Shown here: positions 19,423 through 38,453 of the stretch, in pieces
Layout of the letters: each line of letters begins with the position of its first letter
Numbering within the stretch: the first letter of the stretch is position 1
NCBI RefSeq assembly: GCF_014595945.1
Contig: NZ_JABXWU010000003.1
Coordinates: forward strand, 62,001 to 126,000
DNA: 64,000 nucleotides
Source: Alkalibacillus aidingensis
GTDB taxonomy: Bacteria; Bacillota; Bacilli; Bacillales; Alkalibacillaceae
Reading direction: 5' to 3'
Translations under genes and position numbers: made by a program
The notes under the pieces: generated by a model
What the model was told of the DNA's origin: nothing
Databases searched by the model: none
The model's input: the letters and a program-made list of their open reading frames with translations, nothing else

Positions 19423-19432
19423 ATATGGTCAA

Positions 19433-19577
19433 ATTAACGGAAATGCGTCGACAAGGGGTCAAACCGTTAAATAGCCAGGCTCTAATTAACGGAAATGCGT
19501 CGACAAGGGGTCAAACCGTTAAATAGCCAGGCTCTAATTAACGGAAATGCGTCGACACGATCCCAAATCGTTAAATA
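19433..19577. repeat. 52-bp tandem repeat array A (two exact copies plus a partial third)
   Basis: Units begin ATTAACGGAAATGCGTCGAC at 19433, 19485 and 19537. The first two 52-bp units are identical; the third keeps its first ~22 bases and then changes. Each unit carries the inverted repeat TTAACGG / CCGTTAA separated by ~23 bases (TTAACG/CGTTAA in the third). The period is not a multiple of three, and no gene covers it. Array B (38219) has the same period. Confidence 0.9.
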
Positions 19578-19763
19578 GAATGGCATCATCACTGTTTTAG
19601 CGACCAGTTCTCTACTCACTCACCCGTTTTTCCTACCTAATTTCATTCCAACACAAAAGAGCTGATTTGCGTCCAGCAATTCAGCCTCCTTCTTAACATG
19701 AATGAAAGAATCCATTATCCTCATCATATATTAGCTTTAGAACTCTTATAGGGGGGGATTCAC
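19578..19763 (+). other. Intergenic stretch before the VWA-like gene
   Basis: No gene is seen. An imperfect hairpin lies at ~19651-19689 (GAGCTGATTTGC against GCAATTCAGCCTC). AGGGGGGG at 19750-19757 serves the next gene. Confidence 0.4.
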
Positions 19764-24094: not shown

Positions 24095-25165
24095 ATGACA
24101 AATAAACGAATAATTTTTACAGGTGGAGGAACGGCAGGGCATGTAGTGGTTAACCTTGCTTTAATGCCAGAGTTTATAAAAGAAGGTTATGACATACATT
24201 ATATTGGGTCTTATCAAGGGATTGAACGCGAATTAGTAGAGGGAATGGAAGGCGTGACTTATCATGGTATCGCAACAGGTAAGTTAAGACGTTATTTGTC
24301 GGCCCAAAATATGAAAGATCCATTTAAGGTATTAAAGGGTGTTTTCCAGGCTAAAAAGCTCATGAAAGAGTTAAAACCAAGTATAGTTTTTTCAAAAGGT
24401 GGGTTTGTTTCGGTGCCAGTTGTTATGGCATCTAAAATGTCTAATATACCGTCAATCATCCATGAATCTGATTATACGCCGGGATTAGCTAATAAAATCG
24501 CCACTAATTTTGCTAAGTATGTTTTGACAACCTTCCCTGAAACGAACGAATATCTGCCCCAGAATAAAGTGAAAAACGTTGGTGCAATTGTGCGAGATGA
24601 ATTGTTTCAAGGAGATCCAGGTCAAGCCTATCAAATGACGGACTTTGTTAAATCTAAACCGACCTTACTAGTGATGGGGGGGAGTGCAGGAGCCCAAAGC
24701 ATTAATGAGGCTATTCGTTCTAATCTCCCACAACTGCTTGAAGAGTTTCAAGTCATTCATTTGTGTGGCAAAGGAAAGTTAGACGCATCTATTAAACAGT
24801 ACGGTTACGTTCAATATGAATATGTCACAGATGAACTAAAGGATCTTTTAGCTATTGCGGATGTTGTTGTTTCTCGGGCTGGAGCCAATGCTATATTTGA
24901 GTTTTTAGCTTTAAAAAAACCAATGCTCCTCATCCCGTTGTCAAGGCAAGCAAGCCGAGGTGATCAAATCCTTAATGCTGAATCCTTTAAGAAACGTGGT
25001 TATGCACAAATGCTTGAAGATGAAGAGGTTAATGATCAAACTTTATATGAACAGATCCAAGAGCTTTATCAAAATCGGGAAAAATATATCCAAAATATGC
25101 AAGCTTATCAGCCGATTAAGACTAAAGATGAGGTAATTAATTTAATCAAAACAACCATGAAATAA
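24095..25165 (+). CDS. murG: MurG-type UDP-N-acetylglucosamine transferase (second type, orphan)
   Basis: Family role: adds GlcNAc to lipid I to make lipid II on the inner face of the membrane. The 356-residue protein (ATG at 24095 behind AAAGGAAG; an in-frame TTG at 24071 is less likely) has TGGGTAGHVVVN, SKGGFVSVPVV, IIHESDYTPGLANKIA, VMGGSAGAQSINEAI and SRAGANAIFEFLALKKPMLLIPL. HESD replaces the usual HEQN. No mur or division genes are near it, and B. cereus-group genomes carry a similar second MurG. It may be a paralogue rather than the essential copy. Confidence 0.85.
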   Translation: MTNKRIIFTGGGTAGHVVVNLALMPEFIKEGYDIHYIGSYQGIERELVEGMEGVTYHGIATGKLRRYLSAQNMKDPFKVLKGVFQAKKLMKELKPSIVFSKGGFVSVPVVMASKMSNIPSIIHESDYTPGLANKIATNFAKYVLTTFPETNEYLPQNKVKNVGAIVRDELFQGDPGQAYQMTDFVKSKPTLLVMGGSAGAQSINEAIRSNLPQLLEEFQVIHLCGKGKLDASIKQYGYVQYEYVTDELKDLLAIADVVVSRAGANAIFEFLALKKPMLLIPLSRQASRGDQILNAESFKKRGYAQMLEDEEVNDQTLYEQIQELYQNREKYIQNMQAYQPIKTKDEVINLIKTTMK

Positions 25166-34399: not shown

Positions 34400-36142
34400 A
34401 TGATCTCGGTATTTAGAAAGTTATCTTGGTATTTTAAAGAACAATGGCTTCGCTATACACTGGCCATTTCAGCGCTACTCGTTGTCAATATCCTTGGTGT
34501 TATTCCGCCGATGTTGCTTGGGGAAGTCATTGATTTAATTCAGTATAACCAATTAACAGCAGCAAGGTTTTATGAGCTTTTGGCCATATTTATTGGACTT
34601 GTATTAACTATTTATGTGGTCTCATTTTATTGGGATTTTACCTTGTTTGGACGTGCGTTTTTATTAGAAAGGAAGATGCGTTCGAAATTAATGAATCATT
34701 TTATGCGAATGACACCTACTTTTTTTGGCCGATACCGAACAGGTGACTTGATGGCTAGAAGTACAAATGACCTACGTGCCATTATGATGACAGCAGGATT
34801 CGGTATTTTAACTTTAGTTGATGCAACGATGTTCATGATGTTGATCATTATGGTCATGTCAGTAATGATTAACTGGCATTTAACACTAGCGGCTTTAGTC
34901 CCTTTACCGATTATGGCTTTATTAATGCAGAGGTACGGTCGGGCGATTCACGAACGTTTTACAAAGGCGCAGTCTGCTTTTAGTGATTTAAATAATGACA
35001 CGTTGGAATCGATTCAAGGAGTTCGTGTGATTCGTGCCTTTGTGCAAGAAAAGTGGGATGACGAACGATTTAGTGATCAAACAGAGGAAGTCTTTCAGAA
35101 AAATATTGAAGTTGCTAAAATGGACGCTTTATTTGAACCAACGATAAAAGTATTAGTTGGATTGGCTTATACGATTGGATTAGGGTACGGTTCATATCTT
35201 GTTATTCAAGGTGTGATTACTATTGGTCAATTGGTTACTTTCAATGTGTATTTAGGGATGTTGATTTGGCCAATGTTTGCTGTTGGTGAGCTAATTAACG
35301 TGATGCAAAGAGGCAATGCCTCACTCGATCGAACCGATGAAATTCTGACACATGAGCCAGACGTTAAAGATCCTCTTAAGGAAGTGATGATTGAATCACC
35401 AGAGACGATTAGCTTTAATCAAGTCAGTTTTAGCTATCCACAGGCTGAATCTCATCAATTAAAGGAGATCAATTTACAAATTAATAAAGGTGAGACCATT
35501 GGCATTGTTGGTAAAACAGGTTCTGGGAAGACCACTTTAATCAGGCAATTGTTAAGAGAGTATCCAACACCGGAACAAGGTTCTGTGACCGTTGATTGTA
35601 TTCCAATTGACGAGATCCCCTTGTCTAAAACTCGGGAGTGGATTGGCTATGTCCCACAAGACCATATTTTGTTTTCCAAAACAGTTAGAGAAAACATTTT
35701 ATTTGGGAACATAAATGCTTCAGATGAAGAAGTCTACCGGATGCTAGAATTAGCCTCTCTACGTGAAGATATTGAGCAATTACCAGAAGGATTAGACACC
35801 TTAGTTGGTGAGAGTGGTGTGACTTTATCAGGGGGGCAGAAGCAGCGTGTGTCCTTAGCAAGAGCACTCGTAAAAGACCCCGAATGGTTAATCTTAGATG
35901 ATTCGTTATCAGCTGTAGATGGTCAAACCGAAGCCAAAATCATCCAACACTTGAAACAAGAACGTAGTCATAAAACGACGATCATTGCTGCTCACCGTTT
36001 ATCAGCTGTTAAACATGCCAATCAAATTATCGTACTTGATCAAGGTGAAATAGTTGAACATGGAACACATGATCAGCTTATGGCCTCTAAGAGTTGGTAC
36101 TGCCAACAATTTATTAAGCAACAAATGGAAGGGGGCGAATAA
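34400..36142 (+). CDS. bmrC: Heterodimeric multidrug ABC exporter, subunit with degenerate ATPase site (BmrC/YheI-like)
   Basis: A 580-residue half-transporter with six helices, then an ATPase domain: Walker A GKTGSGKTT (~371-379), signature LSGGQKQR, and Walker B LILDDSLSAVD. Asp501 stands where the catalytic glutamate should be, exactly the substitution seen in BmrC, so its own site is non-hydrolysing and it must pair with the neighbour. The start has GGGGGG upstream. The downstream gene begins one base after its stop. Family role: export of drugs such as ethidium and Hoechst dyes, induced by translation inhibitors. Confidence 0.9.
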   Translation: MISVFRKLSWYFKEQWLRYTLAISALLVVNILGVIPPMLLGEVIDLIQYNQLTAARFYELLAIFIGLVLTIYVVSFYWDFTLFGRAFLLERKMRSKLMNHFMRMTPTFFGRYRTGDLMARSTNDLRAIMMTAGFGILTLVDATMFMMLIIMVMSVMINWHLTLAALVPLPIMALLMQRYGRAIHERFTKAQSAFSDLNNDTLESIQGVRVIRAFVQEKWDDERFSDQTEEVFQKNIEVAKMDALFEPTIKVLVGLAYTIGLGYGSYLVIQGVITIGQLVTFNVYLGMLIWPMFAVGELINVMQRGNASLDRTDEILTHEPDVKDPLKEVMIESPETISFNQVSFSYPQAESHQLKEINLQINKGETIGIVGKTGSGKTTLIRQLLREYPTPEQGSVTVDCIPIDEIPLSKTREWIGYVPQDHILFSKTVRENILFGNINASDEEVYRMLELASLREDIEQLPEGLDTLVGESGVTLSGGQKQRVSLARALVKDPEWLILDDSLSAVDGQTEAKIIQHLKQERSHKTTIIAAHRLSAVKHANQIIVLDQGEIVEHGTHDQLMASKSWYCQQFIKQQMEGGE

Positions 36143-36143
36143 C

Positions 36144-38174
36144 ATGAAAGGTTTATCGACTGAAAAACGCCTTTTCCATTATGCTTTGCAGTATCAAAAG
36201 ACAATTTGGATTGGCCTGATCTGTTTAATTATTGCAGTCGTGATGGAGTTAAGTGGCCCCTTGATTGCCAAAAAGGTGATTGATGATCATATTGTTGGGG
36301 TCGCTAATCATTATGTGGTTACGGATGAGCAGACGGGTGAGGTTGAATATCAAGGTGAATATTATACACGCGTTGAGCGCCATGACTCTGCAAGTGGTGA
36401 GGAAGTTGTGACCCTATTTCAAGATGGCTTATCATTCTTCCTATTAGAAGAAGAAGTTCCGCTTAATGCTAGGTTTGTTGGAGAAGAGGGCTCTAATTAT
36501 GTTTTGGAAACGAATGAAACAGAGGTTATTGTAACAGGACAGTCGTTAACAACGGGTGAGGTATTTTATTTTTTTGAACCTGAAATCAGTTCAATTATGG
36601 CTTGGTTAGGACTATATTTAGGATTAATTCTAGGCTCGACAATTTTCCTATATTATAAAACATACCTACTACAATATGCTTCTAACCGAATTATTCAAAC
36701 GATGCGAAAGGATGTTTTTAAGCATATCCAACGCATTCCGATTCCCTATTTTATAGACCAACCAGCTGGAAAAATCGTTGCTCGTATCACCAATGATACA
36801 GAGGCAATCAAGGAGTTATATGAGAAGGTATTAGAAGTTTTCACTTCTGGTTTCATTTATATGTTTGGAATTTTTATTGCTTTATTTATCTTAGATGCTA
36901 GATTGGCTAGTATTTGCTTGCTTTTAATTCCAATTATGATCATATGGATGAAGGTTTATAAAAAAGTTGCCGGCGATTATAATCATGAGATTCGTGAAAC
37001 CAATAGCCGGATTAATGCTAATATTAATGAATCCATACAAGGAATGTCCATTATTCAAGCGTATAATCAGGTTGATCGAATGACAAGAGAGTTTGAGGAT
37101 TTAAACCACTATCACCATCGTTATCAAAAGAAGATGAACACGTTTACAGCAGCCACCTCATTTAACTTAGTTGATTTTCTTAGAAATGTCGCGTTTGTTG
37201 TGTTCATTATTTACTTTGGCGGATTGTCACTAGATGGCACAGGCATTGTGACTGCTGGTGTTCTTTACGCGTTTGTCGATTACTTAACGAGATTGTTTGA
37301 ACCAGTCAATCAGATCGTTAGTCAACTAGCGCAACTTGAGCAGTCAAGAGTGGCTGGTAGACGCGTATTTGAACTATTAGATGAAGATGGGGAAGAAGTC
37401 TACGAACAACCGATTTCTCGATACAATGGTCATGTTGAGTTTGATCAGGTCTCATTTGCTTATGAAAAAGATGAGTATGTCTTGAAAAACCTATCATTTT
37501 CTATTCAGCCGGGTGAAACAGCGGCTTTTGTCGGTCATACAGGTTCTGGAAAAAGCACCATCATGAATTTATTGTTTCGATTTTATGATCCATCTACAGG
37601 GCAAGTTTTAATTGATGGGAAACCGATTAGTAAATTATCAAGACAGCAAGCTAGAAGCCATATTGGTATTGTGCTTCAGGATCCGTTTATATTTACAGGC
37701 ACGATTCTTTCTAATGTAACGATGAATGATCCTCGGATTAGTCGAAAAGATGCAATACAGGCTTTAAAGGCGGTTGGTGCAGATCAATTTATTGAGAAGT
37801 TACCTAATCAATATGATGAGCCGGTTAAAGAAAAGGGGGCTGAGTTTTCCACTGGTCAAAGACAGTTATTATCTTTTGCTAGAGCTTTAGCTTTTGATCC
37901 TGCCATTTTAATATTAGATGAAGCAACAGCGAATATCGATACAGAGACAGAAGCAATGATTCAGGATGCATTAAAAGTGTTAAAGAAAGGAAGGACAACC
38001 TTGGTGATTGCCCATCGTTTGTCCACGATTCAAGATGCTGATCAAATCTTTGTACTAAAGCAGGGAGAATTGATTGAAAAAGGTACACACCAAACGCTCT
38101 TGCAAGAACAAGGTGAATACTATATGATGTATAAAATGCAGCTTGGACACCCCCACTCATATGCCTCGTTTTAA
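36144..38174 (+). CDS. bmrD: Heterodimeric multidrug ABC exporter, catalytic subunit (BmrD/YheH-like)
   Basis: A 676-residue half-transporter (ATG at 36144 behind GGGGGCG). Between the first two helices is an extracytoplasmic insert of ~90 residues (HHYVVTDEQTGEVEYQGE to TTGEVFYFF), a BmrD trait. Its ATPase domain has Walker A GHTGSGKST, Walker B LILDEATANID with the catalytic Glu, and a degenerate signature FSTGQRQ. The weak signature complements the weak Walker B of the partner to form the single inactive site; the other site is complete. This is the expected asymmetry of BmrCD-type pumps. Confidence 0.92.
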   Translation: MKGLSTEKRLFHYALQYQKTIWIGLICLIIAVVMELSGPLIAKKVIDDHIVGVANHYVVTDEQTGEVEYQGEYYTRVERHDSASGEEVVTLFQDGLSFFLLEEEVPLNARFVGEEGSNYVLETNETEVIVTGQSLTTGEVFYFFEPEISSIMAWLGLYLGLILGSTIFLYYKTYLLQYASNRIIQTMRKDVFKHIQRIPIPYFIDQPAGKIVARITNDTEAIKELYEKVLEVFTSGFIYMFGIFIALFILDARLASICLLLIPIMIIWMKVYKKVAGDYNHEIRETNSRINANINESIQGMSIIQAYNQVDRMTREFEDLNHYHHRYQKKMNTFTAATSFNLVDFLRNVAFVVFIIYFGGLSLDGTGIVTAGVLYAFVDYLTRLFEPVNQIVSQLAQLEQSRVAGRRVFELLDEDGEEVYEQPISRYNGHVEFDQVSFAYEKDEYVLKNLSFSIQPGETAAFVGHTGSGKSTIMNLLFRFYDPSTGQVLIDGKPISKLSRQQARSHIGIVLQDPFIFTGTILSNVTMNDPRISRKDAIQALKAVGADQFIEKLPNQYDEPVKEKGAEFSTGQRQLLSFARALAFDPAILILDEATANIDTETEAMIQDALKVLKKGRTTLVIAHRLSTIQDADQIFVLKQGELIEKGTHQTLLQEQGEYYMMYKMQLGHPHSYASF

Positions 38175-38218
38175 GTTTTGTATAATAGGAGGGGAGGCGA
38201 AATAGTGTGGTAGGGGTG

Positions 38219-38426
38219 TCTATACGGAAATTAACAGTTAGATCGGGAAAAATGGTATTGAGAGAGGTTATCTATACCGAAAACGCCGATCAATGTTGAG
38301 AAAAACGTTTAGAGTGAGGCTCTCTACACCGAAATTAGTGATTAAAGTTGAAAAAATCGTATAGAAGGCCTCTGTCTACTCTAAAATTAGCCGTCAAATC
38401 GATAAAAATGTCGTAGAGACCTGTTG
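38219..38426. repeat. 52-bp tandem repeat array B (four diverged units)
   Basis: Four gap-free units of 52 bp begin at 38219, 38271, 38323 and 38375, each starting TCTA(T/C)... and containing GAAA, an AT-rich centre and AAAAA followed by GTATAGAG-like sequence. The start and end of each unit are roughly complementary (unit 1 TCTATAC... GGTATTGA; unit 4 GTCTAC... GTAGAGAC), so each can form a hairpin. Same period as array A (19433), weakly similar sequence, no coding potential. It fills the gap between the pump and the protease gene. Confidence 0.85.
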
Positions 38427-38453
38427 AAAAGCCATTTCTAAGGAGCAATTGCG

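What the first reader, a model, noticed from the sequence alone, without database searches (positions are those of the whole stretch)
38219..38426. Second 52-bp array (B), four diverged units with the same period
19 kb from array A, four gapless 52-bp units occur with different sequence but the same unit length, TCTA at the start, GAAA after ~8-12 bases, an A-rich centre and complementary ends. Same period and same hairpin design in two places suggest one family of repeats that grows in 52-bp steps, perhaps made by a trans-acting enzyme or replication slippage on a fixed structure. This may be an undescribed intergenic repeat system.
Basis: partly seen in the sequence, partly recalled or inferred. 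Interest (0 to 1): 0.65.

Follow-up and report, generated by a model that had tools for sequence, protein, structure and literature searches.

The report
Genome-wide 52-bp phased intergenic repeat arrays
The four 52-bp units are one of more than thirty intergenic repeat arrays in this bacterium that keep the same 52-bp step although their sequences differ; sampled close relatives carry mostly 20-21-bp arrays instead, at one gene end in the very same place, and the function is unknown.

Summary
In detail: four gapless 52-bp units at 38219-38426 (lag-52 match 95/156; mean 41.6, sd 6.9). The guess of one 52-bp family is largely right and too modest: I catalogued 30 arrays with this step, plus two more of B's own subtype (one at steps of 52, one short with a step of 53). 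All three B-type arrays lie in sense 2-27 nt before a start codon. In 400 kb sampled without regard to arrays, 5 of 9 non-coding arrays have period 52 (7 of 11 with the window). Stretches of ten relatives (1.15 Mb) have one array near it (53) and mostly multiples of 20-21. Behind rocA all five congeners have a 20-21-bp array where this species has a 52-bp one; at other sites this mostly does not hold. In A-type units facing arms are alike between arrays (81%), centres are not (37%), with an ascertainment caveat. Arm covariation: three tests, none found. No shared neighbour gene; the one REP-transposase-like gene sits among other palindromes. Best reading, inferred: helically phased (5 x 10.4 bp) inverted half-sites for a DNA-binding protein or topoisomerase. 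RNA leader and neutral satellite remain open.

The parts
38219..38270 (+). Array B unit 1
   Evidence: lag-52 register and alignment A1
38271..38322 (+). Array B unit 2
38323..38374 (+). Array B unit 3
38375..38426 (+). Array B unit 4
38179..38238 (+). G-rich, C-poor left-edge window of array B (22 G, 4 C)
38181..38186 (+). TATAAT, a possible -10 element, seen by eye only; the consensus scan did not list it
   Evidence: sequence; not among the sites
38440..38445 (+). AAGGAG, likely ribosome binding site of the peptidase gene, behind the array
   Evidence: sequence, read by eye
36054..38174 (+). ABC transporter permease/ATPase gene upstream of array B (ORF start uncertain)
   Evidence: PF00664, PF00005
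38454..39272 (+). Trypsin-like serine peptidase gene downstream of array B, followed by sigI and rsgI
   Evidence: PF13365; HtrA models match below their cut-offs; SigI and RsgI
19429..19584 (+). Array A, three A-type 52-bp units behind odhB
   Evidence: odhB by NCBIfam

Best explanation
Array B is one locus of a lineage-specific superfamily of head-to-tail 52-bp intergenic arrays. SHOWN: the same step in 30 catalogued arrays plus two further B-type arrays (one with a 53 step); among A-type arrays the two facing arms are alike and the centre is not; units are more alike inside an array than between arrays. INFERRED: arrays grow and shrink by whole units (unequal recombination or slippage) and homogenise locally. 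The 52-bp length and the two facing half-sites (A-type CTAATTRACGG, B-type TCTAYAC plus an A-run) are held by selection, because 52 bp is five turns of B-DNA, so that every unit offers its half-sites on the same DNA face. The arrays would then be cooperative binding scaffolds for a dyad-recognising protein, or a wrapping topoisomerase or nucleoid protein, at gene boundaries, resembling the role proposed for E. coli BIMEs (recalled). The B subtype is the version placed in 5' leaders, directly before start codons.
For: 75 of 77 successive A-type unit steps are 52, the others 50 and 51; one step of 104 is two units, and gaps of 193 and 1200 lie outside arrays. A-type arms: 0.88 identical within arrays, 0.81 between; centre 0.74 and 0.37; tail 0.62 and 0.33. 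Period 52 in 5 of 9 non-coding arrays of the 400-kb sample, 7 of 11 with the window. In relatives 16 of 19 non-coding periodic regions have lags of 20-21, 40-42, 61 or 81-84 (after dropping 4 of 23 by eye: two tRNA clusters, two Q-rich frames). Behind rocA this species has a 52-bp array and the five congeners 20-21-bp arrays with other motifs: 0/300 shuffles in G001, G002, G004, G005; 9/300 in G003, whose motif recurs at steps of 20-22; exact 21-bp steps in G002, G004, G005 and, with one position unmatched, G001. Both strands fold better than shuffles (mean z -4.2 and -3.6 over 30 arrays). G-to-C skew inverts across arrays: 17/30 against 13/111 control intergenic regions, p 1e-6. No RNA covariation.
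Against: No binding protein was identified or tested. The A-type set was gathered by similarity to array A and its units were picked with a profile seeded on the arms, so arm conservation between arrays is partly by construction; other unit families have other arms. Helical phasing rests on few values: the relatives' lags are mostly multiples of one base period of 20-21, and 61, 65 and 127 fit less well. The 10.4-bp harmonic has the largest mean share for G+C (0.087; flat 0.038) but is top in only 4 of 30 arrays, is second to 7.4 bp for WW dinucleotides (0.119 and 0.125), and is unremarkable for R/Y (0.044). Array B lacks the skew inversion (right edge 15 G, 9 C). B-type arrays in leaders fit an RNA role better. 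Site exchange is clear only behind rocA: array A's site is empty in the 4 readable congeners, and of five other sites seen in one congener each, one has a 42-bp periodicity (0/300), one is borderline (14/300), three have none. 27 of 29 arrays lie behind at least one gene end, but so do 93 of 111 controls (p 0.25).
Confidence: 0.35

Rival explanations
1. RNA-level element: the B-type arrays are transcribed 5' leaders (tandem weak hairpins with Shine-Dalgarno-like tails) that tune translation or decay of the gene behind them, and the 3' arrays are mRNA-end hairpins as proposed for REPs.
For: Three of three B-type arrays lie in sense 27, 2 and 4 nt before a start codon; in two the last tail itself looks like a purine-rich RBS (by eye). 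No terminator-like site was found on the + strand behind the ABC gene, so read-through is likely. The B region with flanks folds better than each of 200 shuffles, z -2.5. By the ORF caller, 2 of 17 other codirectional arrays end within 30 bp of a downstream start (gaps); 3/3 against 2/17 gives p about 0.009 by hand (one search was fed 1/17, a hand reading, p 0.0035).
Against: No covariation in B-type arms (score 0.058, shuffles 0.077) or A-type arms on either strand. The other two B-type arrays fold unremarkably in sense (z -0.9 and -0.9), one better in antisense (-3.2), and B equally on both strands. A-type arrays occur in either orientation towards their genes. Only three B-type loci, two found with models of the first.
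Confidence: 0.27
2. Neutral or selfish minisatellites: a 52-bp palindromic unit spread and amplified in this species by slippage, recombination and gene conversion, without a host function.
For: A-type units were not found in 59 other genomes by BLASTN or 29 by model; B gave two short weak BLASTN matches (27-30 bp, E 0.005 and 0.0096) in 59 others. Empty sites at B in four named relatives and at A in four congeners. Within-array homogenisation, degenerate edge units.
Against: Arms more alike than centres between A-type arrays (partly by construction, see above), the step kept at 52 across families that share little sequence, and arrays with other motifs at the rocA site in five of five congeners.
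Confidence: 0.27
3. Array B is unrelated to the other arrays and shares 52 bp by coincidence.
For: The A-type model does not find B in register, BLASTN at E 0.1 finds only itself in the genome, the direct A-to-B comparison is at chance level, and the palindrome axis differs by 4 columns.
Against: Two further B-type arrays exist, one at steps of 52 and one with a step of 53 (each 0/300 shuffles); 52 is the commonest period of non-coding arrays here; several dissimilar unit families share it, two of them within one array.
Confidence: 0.07
4. REP-like element mobilised by a REP-associated tyrosine transposase.
For: One such gene is present, 191 aa; NCBIfam NF047646 scores 79.8 against a cut-off of 80. 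Units are palindromic and intergenic.
Against: The gene is flanked by copies of a different palindrome (GTGCCTGTCAC..., by eye) and its 3.3-kb locus shows no 52-bp periodicity. Units are head-to-tail, not in alternating orientation.
Confidence: 0.04

Closest known systems
REP / BIME elements (GTAG and CGTC superfamilies; PMC3733652, passages seen)
   Same: Short palindromic intergenic repeats, mostly between convergent or codirectional genes; dimers and composite arrays; proposed roles in supercoiling, termination and mRNA stability.
   Different: Units are 52 bp, head-to-tail, strictly spaced; no unpaired GTAG or CGTC tag (CGTC lies inside the arm); the RAYT-like gene here is not beside them; many sequence families with one step.
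Bacterial minisatellites / VNTRs (recalled)
   Same: Head-to-tail arrays with local homogenisation and differing copy number.
   Different: The same unit length in many loci and several sequence families; in A-type units arms are alike between loci while centres are not.
Iteron or phased binding-site arrays (recalled, no call)
   Same: Short motif at a constant distance with largely variable spacer, as in the 21-bp arrays of the congeners.
   Different: Dispersed over the chromosome in intergenic regions, with different motifs; no initiator gene was sought.
CRISPR arrays
   Same: Regular repeats with a conserved and a variable part.
   Different: The centres are alike within an array (0.74 identity); cas genes were not sought.

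Membership tests
REP/BIME | Unpaired GTAG or CGTC tag at one end of the palindrome | tested here: not met
   Conserved CGTC lies in the paired right arm, columns 37-40 of A2; B-type units share no GTAG or CGTC end
REP/BIME | RAYT gene flanked by the same repeat (GTAG type) | tested here: not met
   Single Y1_Tnp match; flanks hold other palindromes and no 52-bp periodicity
REP/BIME | Intergenic, mostly between convergent or codirectional genes | tested here: met
   30 arrays: 12 ++, 9 convergent, 6 --, 2 divergent, 1 unknown; not clearly different from control intergenic regions (convergent excess p 0.05, divergent p 0.25). B-type arrays lie before start codons, one in a divergent region
REP/BIME | Binding of gyrase or other host proteins | not testable with these tools
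   No experimental data
Structured RNA (riboswitch-like leader) | Covarying base pairs | tested here: not met
   A-type + strand 0.129 against shuffles 0.131; - strand 0.152 against 0.150; B-type 0.058 against 0.077; RNAalifold gives no consensus on A2
Structured RNA (riboswitch-like leader) | Match to an Rfam family | tested here: not met
   At gathering thresholds only S414 at 24626-24800 in the window
CRISPR | Near-identical repeats separated by mutually unrelated spacers | tested here: not met
   A-type centres 0.74 identical within arrays
52-bp superfamily of this genome | 52-bp step, and relatives of B elsewhere in the genome | tested here: met
A-type subfamily | Match to the A-type covariance model | tested here: not met
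   No in-register match of B with filters off

The most novel reading that the evidence does not exclude
Members of this family of (by their named relatives, halophilic) Bacillaceae keep a previously undescribed class of intergenic binding-site arrays whose unit length is locked to whole turns of DNA (20-21, 40-42, 52 bp), whose position can persist between species while motif and period are wholly replaced (shown behind rocA), and which are read by a rapidly changing DNA-binding protein or topoisomerase acting at gene boundaries, with a sub-type (array B) recruited into 5' leaders.
Probability: 0.25. Interest if true: 0.8.

Novelty: new variant of a known kind. Interest (0 to 1): 0.55.

Why it matters
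A unit length that stays fixed while sequence turns over, together with replacement of one array type by another behind the same gene in sister species, would make the question of what bacterial intergenic palindromic arrays are selected for directly testable: DNA phase, RNA structure and neutrality predict different outcomes of simple spacing and deletion experiments.

Tried and rejected
Rejected: RNA-structure conservation (three pair counts). A shared neighbour gene: 59 flanking proteins of the 30 arrays compared all against all; five related pairs, of which one is the same gene counted on both its sides, two are that gene against a 54% homologue beside L142, and two are about 34% paralogues. 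RAYT mobilisation. Sequence identity of A and B. A Rho-terminator reading of the skew (G-rich then C-rich on each strand would suit bidirectional rut sites) was considered but not tested; several arrays already lie next to intrinsic-terminator-like hairpins seen by eye.

Limits and dropped rows: A2/A3 hold 57 units chosen by hand (3-9 per locus) from the 13 loci then known, counting window array A. The A-type units were picked with a profile seeded on the arms. L092 fell below the lag threshold and is not among the 30; the C1 and C4 B-type arrays came later and are not among them either. Edge windows were chosen after I had noticed the skew (27/30 left, 27/30 right); the half-array test (17/30 against 13/111) is the more cautious figure. 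For 20-21-bp arrays in relatives the inversion was 9/15, reverse 0/15, on 15 arrays picked by hand; over whole intergenic thirds it was 7 of 16. Gene calls are by a simple ORF picker. In one search the odhB locus of G003 was cut by a contig end and is not counted. In one search the stretch printed for L086 was the wrong side of the gene and is not counted. G012 has a borderline 20-bp periodicity behind rocA (6/300). Model searches scored at most 150 candidates per genome, so the unit list is a lower bound and absence in relatives is absence among scored candidates. Searches use different filters: L142 and two of the three L136 arrays are only.

Full report
OBSERVATION. Window 38219-38426 holds four gapless units of 52 bp. 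The lag-52 match of the 156-base window at 38219 is 95 against a mean of 41.6 (sd 6.9) over the window. The array lies between an ABC transporter gene and a trypsin-like peptidase gene that is followed by sigI and rsgI. In four named relatives (Filobacillus milosensis, two Piscibacillus, Aquisalibacillus elongatus) the same two genes are adjacent with about 12-16 nt between them and no array (gaps read by eye), against 279 nt here. In the five congeners the peptidase gene is present; a scan of its 3.8-kb loci for lags 40-69 flagged none of the five, and in the three where I read the upstream sequence another gene precedes it (for G001 and G004 the other side was printed).

ONE SUPERFAMILY, SEVERAL SEQUENCES. 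BLASTN with B finds only itself in the genome at E 0.1, but BLASTN with array A finds many places. Twelve stretches fetched for these hold arrays in which 52 is the best lag, or (one array) second to 104. A model of 57 A-type units returned 150 hits (the cap), including second-strand hits of near-palindromic units, and led to 11 further loci, one of which had also been hit by BLASTN. Here different unit families share arrays: in L084 units of the form TCTAATTGACGG... switch to CTCTCGGACATTTTGCGC...; L055 begins with TCTCAATGCCG... units before A-type ones; most of L090 is of the latter kind. Twenty 20-kb stretches chosen without regard to arrays gave five further 52-bp arrays, none of which was among the hits of the A-type model. 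In that 400-kb sample 5 of 9 non-coding periodic regions have period 52; three neighbouring ones with one motif have 42/21 and one has 40/20; with the window it is 7 of 11. Thirty arrays were catalogued.

B IS NOT ALONE. A sequence model of B's four units found a second array at C1:870684-870891 with four units in 52-bp register (single hits E 0.05-2.2, but in register; 0/300 shuffles), 2 nt before the start codon of rnhC (RNase HIII), with zapA diverging on the other side. A model of these eight units found a third at C4: two units one 53-bp step apart (E 4e-4 and 0.0024; 0/300 shuffles at lag 53) and a partial one, 4 nt before the start of a 93-aa ORF with no Pfam match. B ends 27 nt before the peptidase ATG. 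All three point in the sense of the downstream gene. Two end in a purine-rich tail that itself looks like the ribosome binding site (by eye). No match in 12 other genomes passes E 0.01 (best 0.0115).

WHAT IS CONSERVED. Between A-type arrays the arms are 0.81 identical, the centre 0.37, the tail 0.33; within arrays 0.88, 0.74, 0.62. Seventy-five of 77 successive steps are 52. A caveat: these arrays were collected by similarity to array A and the units were picked with a profile seeded on the arms, so the contrast between arms and centre is partly by construction, and other families have other arms. The arms face each other (CTAATTRACGG and its inverse). Base-pair covariation is absent on the + strand, on the - strand, where 87% of outer-stem cells pair because A.C becomes G.U, and in the B-type. 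Consensus units are mildly palindromic (mean z 1.3 over 30), and both strands of the arrays fold better than shuffles (mean z -4.2 and -3.6; the central 420 bases where longer, 60 shuffles each). The A-type and B-type palindromes have different axes but the same repeat length, so hairpin size does not set the period.

SKEW. Across arrays the + strand changes from G-rich to C-rich whatever the direction of the flanking genes: left edge G>C in 27 of 30, right edge C>G in 27 of 30. With whole halves and controls from the same genome it is 17 of 30 against 13 of 111, p 1e-6. B itself has the G-rich left edge but not the C-rich right edge.

RELATIVES. A-type units were not found in 29 other genomes by model or in 59 by BLASTN; B gave two short weak matches in 59. 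Stretches of ten relatives (1.15 Mb) have 19 non-coding periodic regions after four were removed by eye; 16 have lags of 20-21, 40-42, 61 or 81-84, the rest 53, 65 and 127 (one region, L178, was not read). The relatives' arrays carry several motifs. Behind rocA (L-glutamate gamma-semialdehyde dehydrogenase) this species has an A-type 52-bp array. Of 13 other genomes examined there, G001, G002, G004 and G005 have 20-21-bp-based arrays with other motifs (0/300 shuffles each), G003 a weaker one (9/300, motif at steps of 20-22), G008 a 42-bp and G011 a 41-bp one (0/300), G012 a borderline one (6/300), and five none; G001-G005 are the congeners. The motif recurs at exactly 21-bp steps in G002, G004 and G005, and in G001 with one position unmatched. 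Behind odhB (array A) none of 12 other genomes, four congeners among them, has a periodicity above shuffles. Of five other sites seen by chance in one congener each, the L054 site in G005 has a 42-bp periodicity (0/300), the L087 site in G002 a borderline 20-bp one (14/300; three units by eye), and the L053, L085 and L093 sites none. So replacement at a fixed site is clear behind rocA and not general.

MECHANISM. The facts to be explained are a constant length, facing arms with free centres, no consistent strand, no covariation, and array exchange at one fixed site. A DNA-level scaffold phased to the helix explains most of these; 52 bp is five turns and 20-21 bp is two. The Fourier share at 10.4 bp is the largest for G+C on average (0.087), but top in only 4 of 30 arrays, second for WW dinucleotides and unremarkable for R/Y. 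No binder is known. The leader position of the B-type arrays is the strongest point for an RNA role, and species restriction the strongest for neutrality.

LITERATURE. Ten searches of an open-licence full-text library showed no description of these arrays; most subscription papers are not in it, and only the listed top results were seen. PMC3733652 was seen in passages; PMC2817692, PMC8266576, PMC12306157, PMC3116915 and PMC8360656 only as search listings with the start of the abstract. Gyrase binding of BIMEs is recalled.

VERDICT.

Noticed in passing
window 24626-24800 (-): Rfam RF02895 (Staphylococcus sRNA S414) match, 46.4 bits against a gathering score of 45.
   Followed up: no
L230 (G001), L232 (G002), L233 (G005), L234 (G004): downstream of rocA: Arrays of a short motif at 21-bp steps with largely variable spacers, in place of the 52-bp array of this species.
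   Followed up: partly
L149, L150, L151 (G001) and L155, L156, L161, L162, L164 (G005): Many non-coding 20-21/41-42-bp arrays with a handful of motifs per genome; 8 of 16 intergenic regions with arrays are convergent, against 9 of 70 without.
   Followed up: partly
L136 9368-9629, 12280-12579, 19775-19937 (G000:C12): Three neighbouring 42/21-bp arrays with the motif CACGGATT in the window's own genome; part of a GTGCCTGTCACTTCCCG palindrome lies beside the third.
   Followed up: no
L247 1471-2046 (G000:C12:210655): Single REP-associated tyrosine transposase-like gene (NF047646, 79.8 bits, cut-off 80) among GTGCCTGTCAC palindromes.
   Followed up: partly
L048 3255-3374, L055 2903-3010, L056 3186-3260 (L048 and L056 in reverse-complement coordinates): The last unit and 3' flank of several arrays become C-rich and G-poor, the left flanks G-rich: a skew inversion across the array.
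   Followed up: yes
window 19655-19690; L047, L050, L051 behind their arrays: A similar hairpin (GCTGAATTGC...CCAGCAATTCAGC, varying) preceded by an A-run recurs just behind several arrays; it may be the terminator of a leftward transcript.
   Followed up: no
L198 7305-7527 (G012): A 52/53-bp array with a different sequence in another genus of the family.
   Followed up: no
L277 1590-1700 (G000:C4) and L253 1510-1660 (G000:C1): Some B-type units contain short ATG frames that read alike by eye (such as THHVKN and AHHGKK); array B lacks the ATG, so probably by-products.
   Followed up: no
window 38187-38212: A strong Shine-Dalgarno-like AGGAGGGGAGG directly before array B, followed by the frame GTG TGG TAG (by eye).
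   Followed up: no
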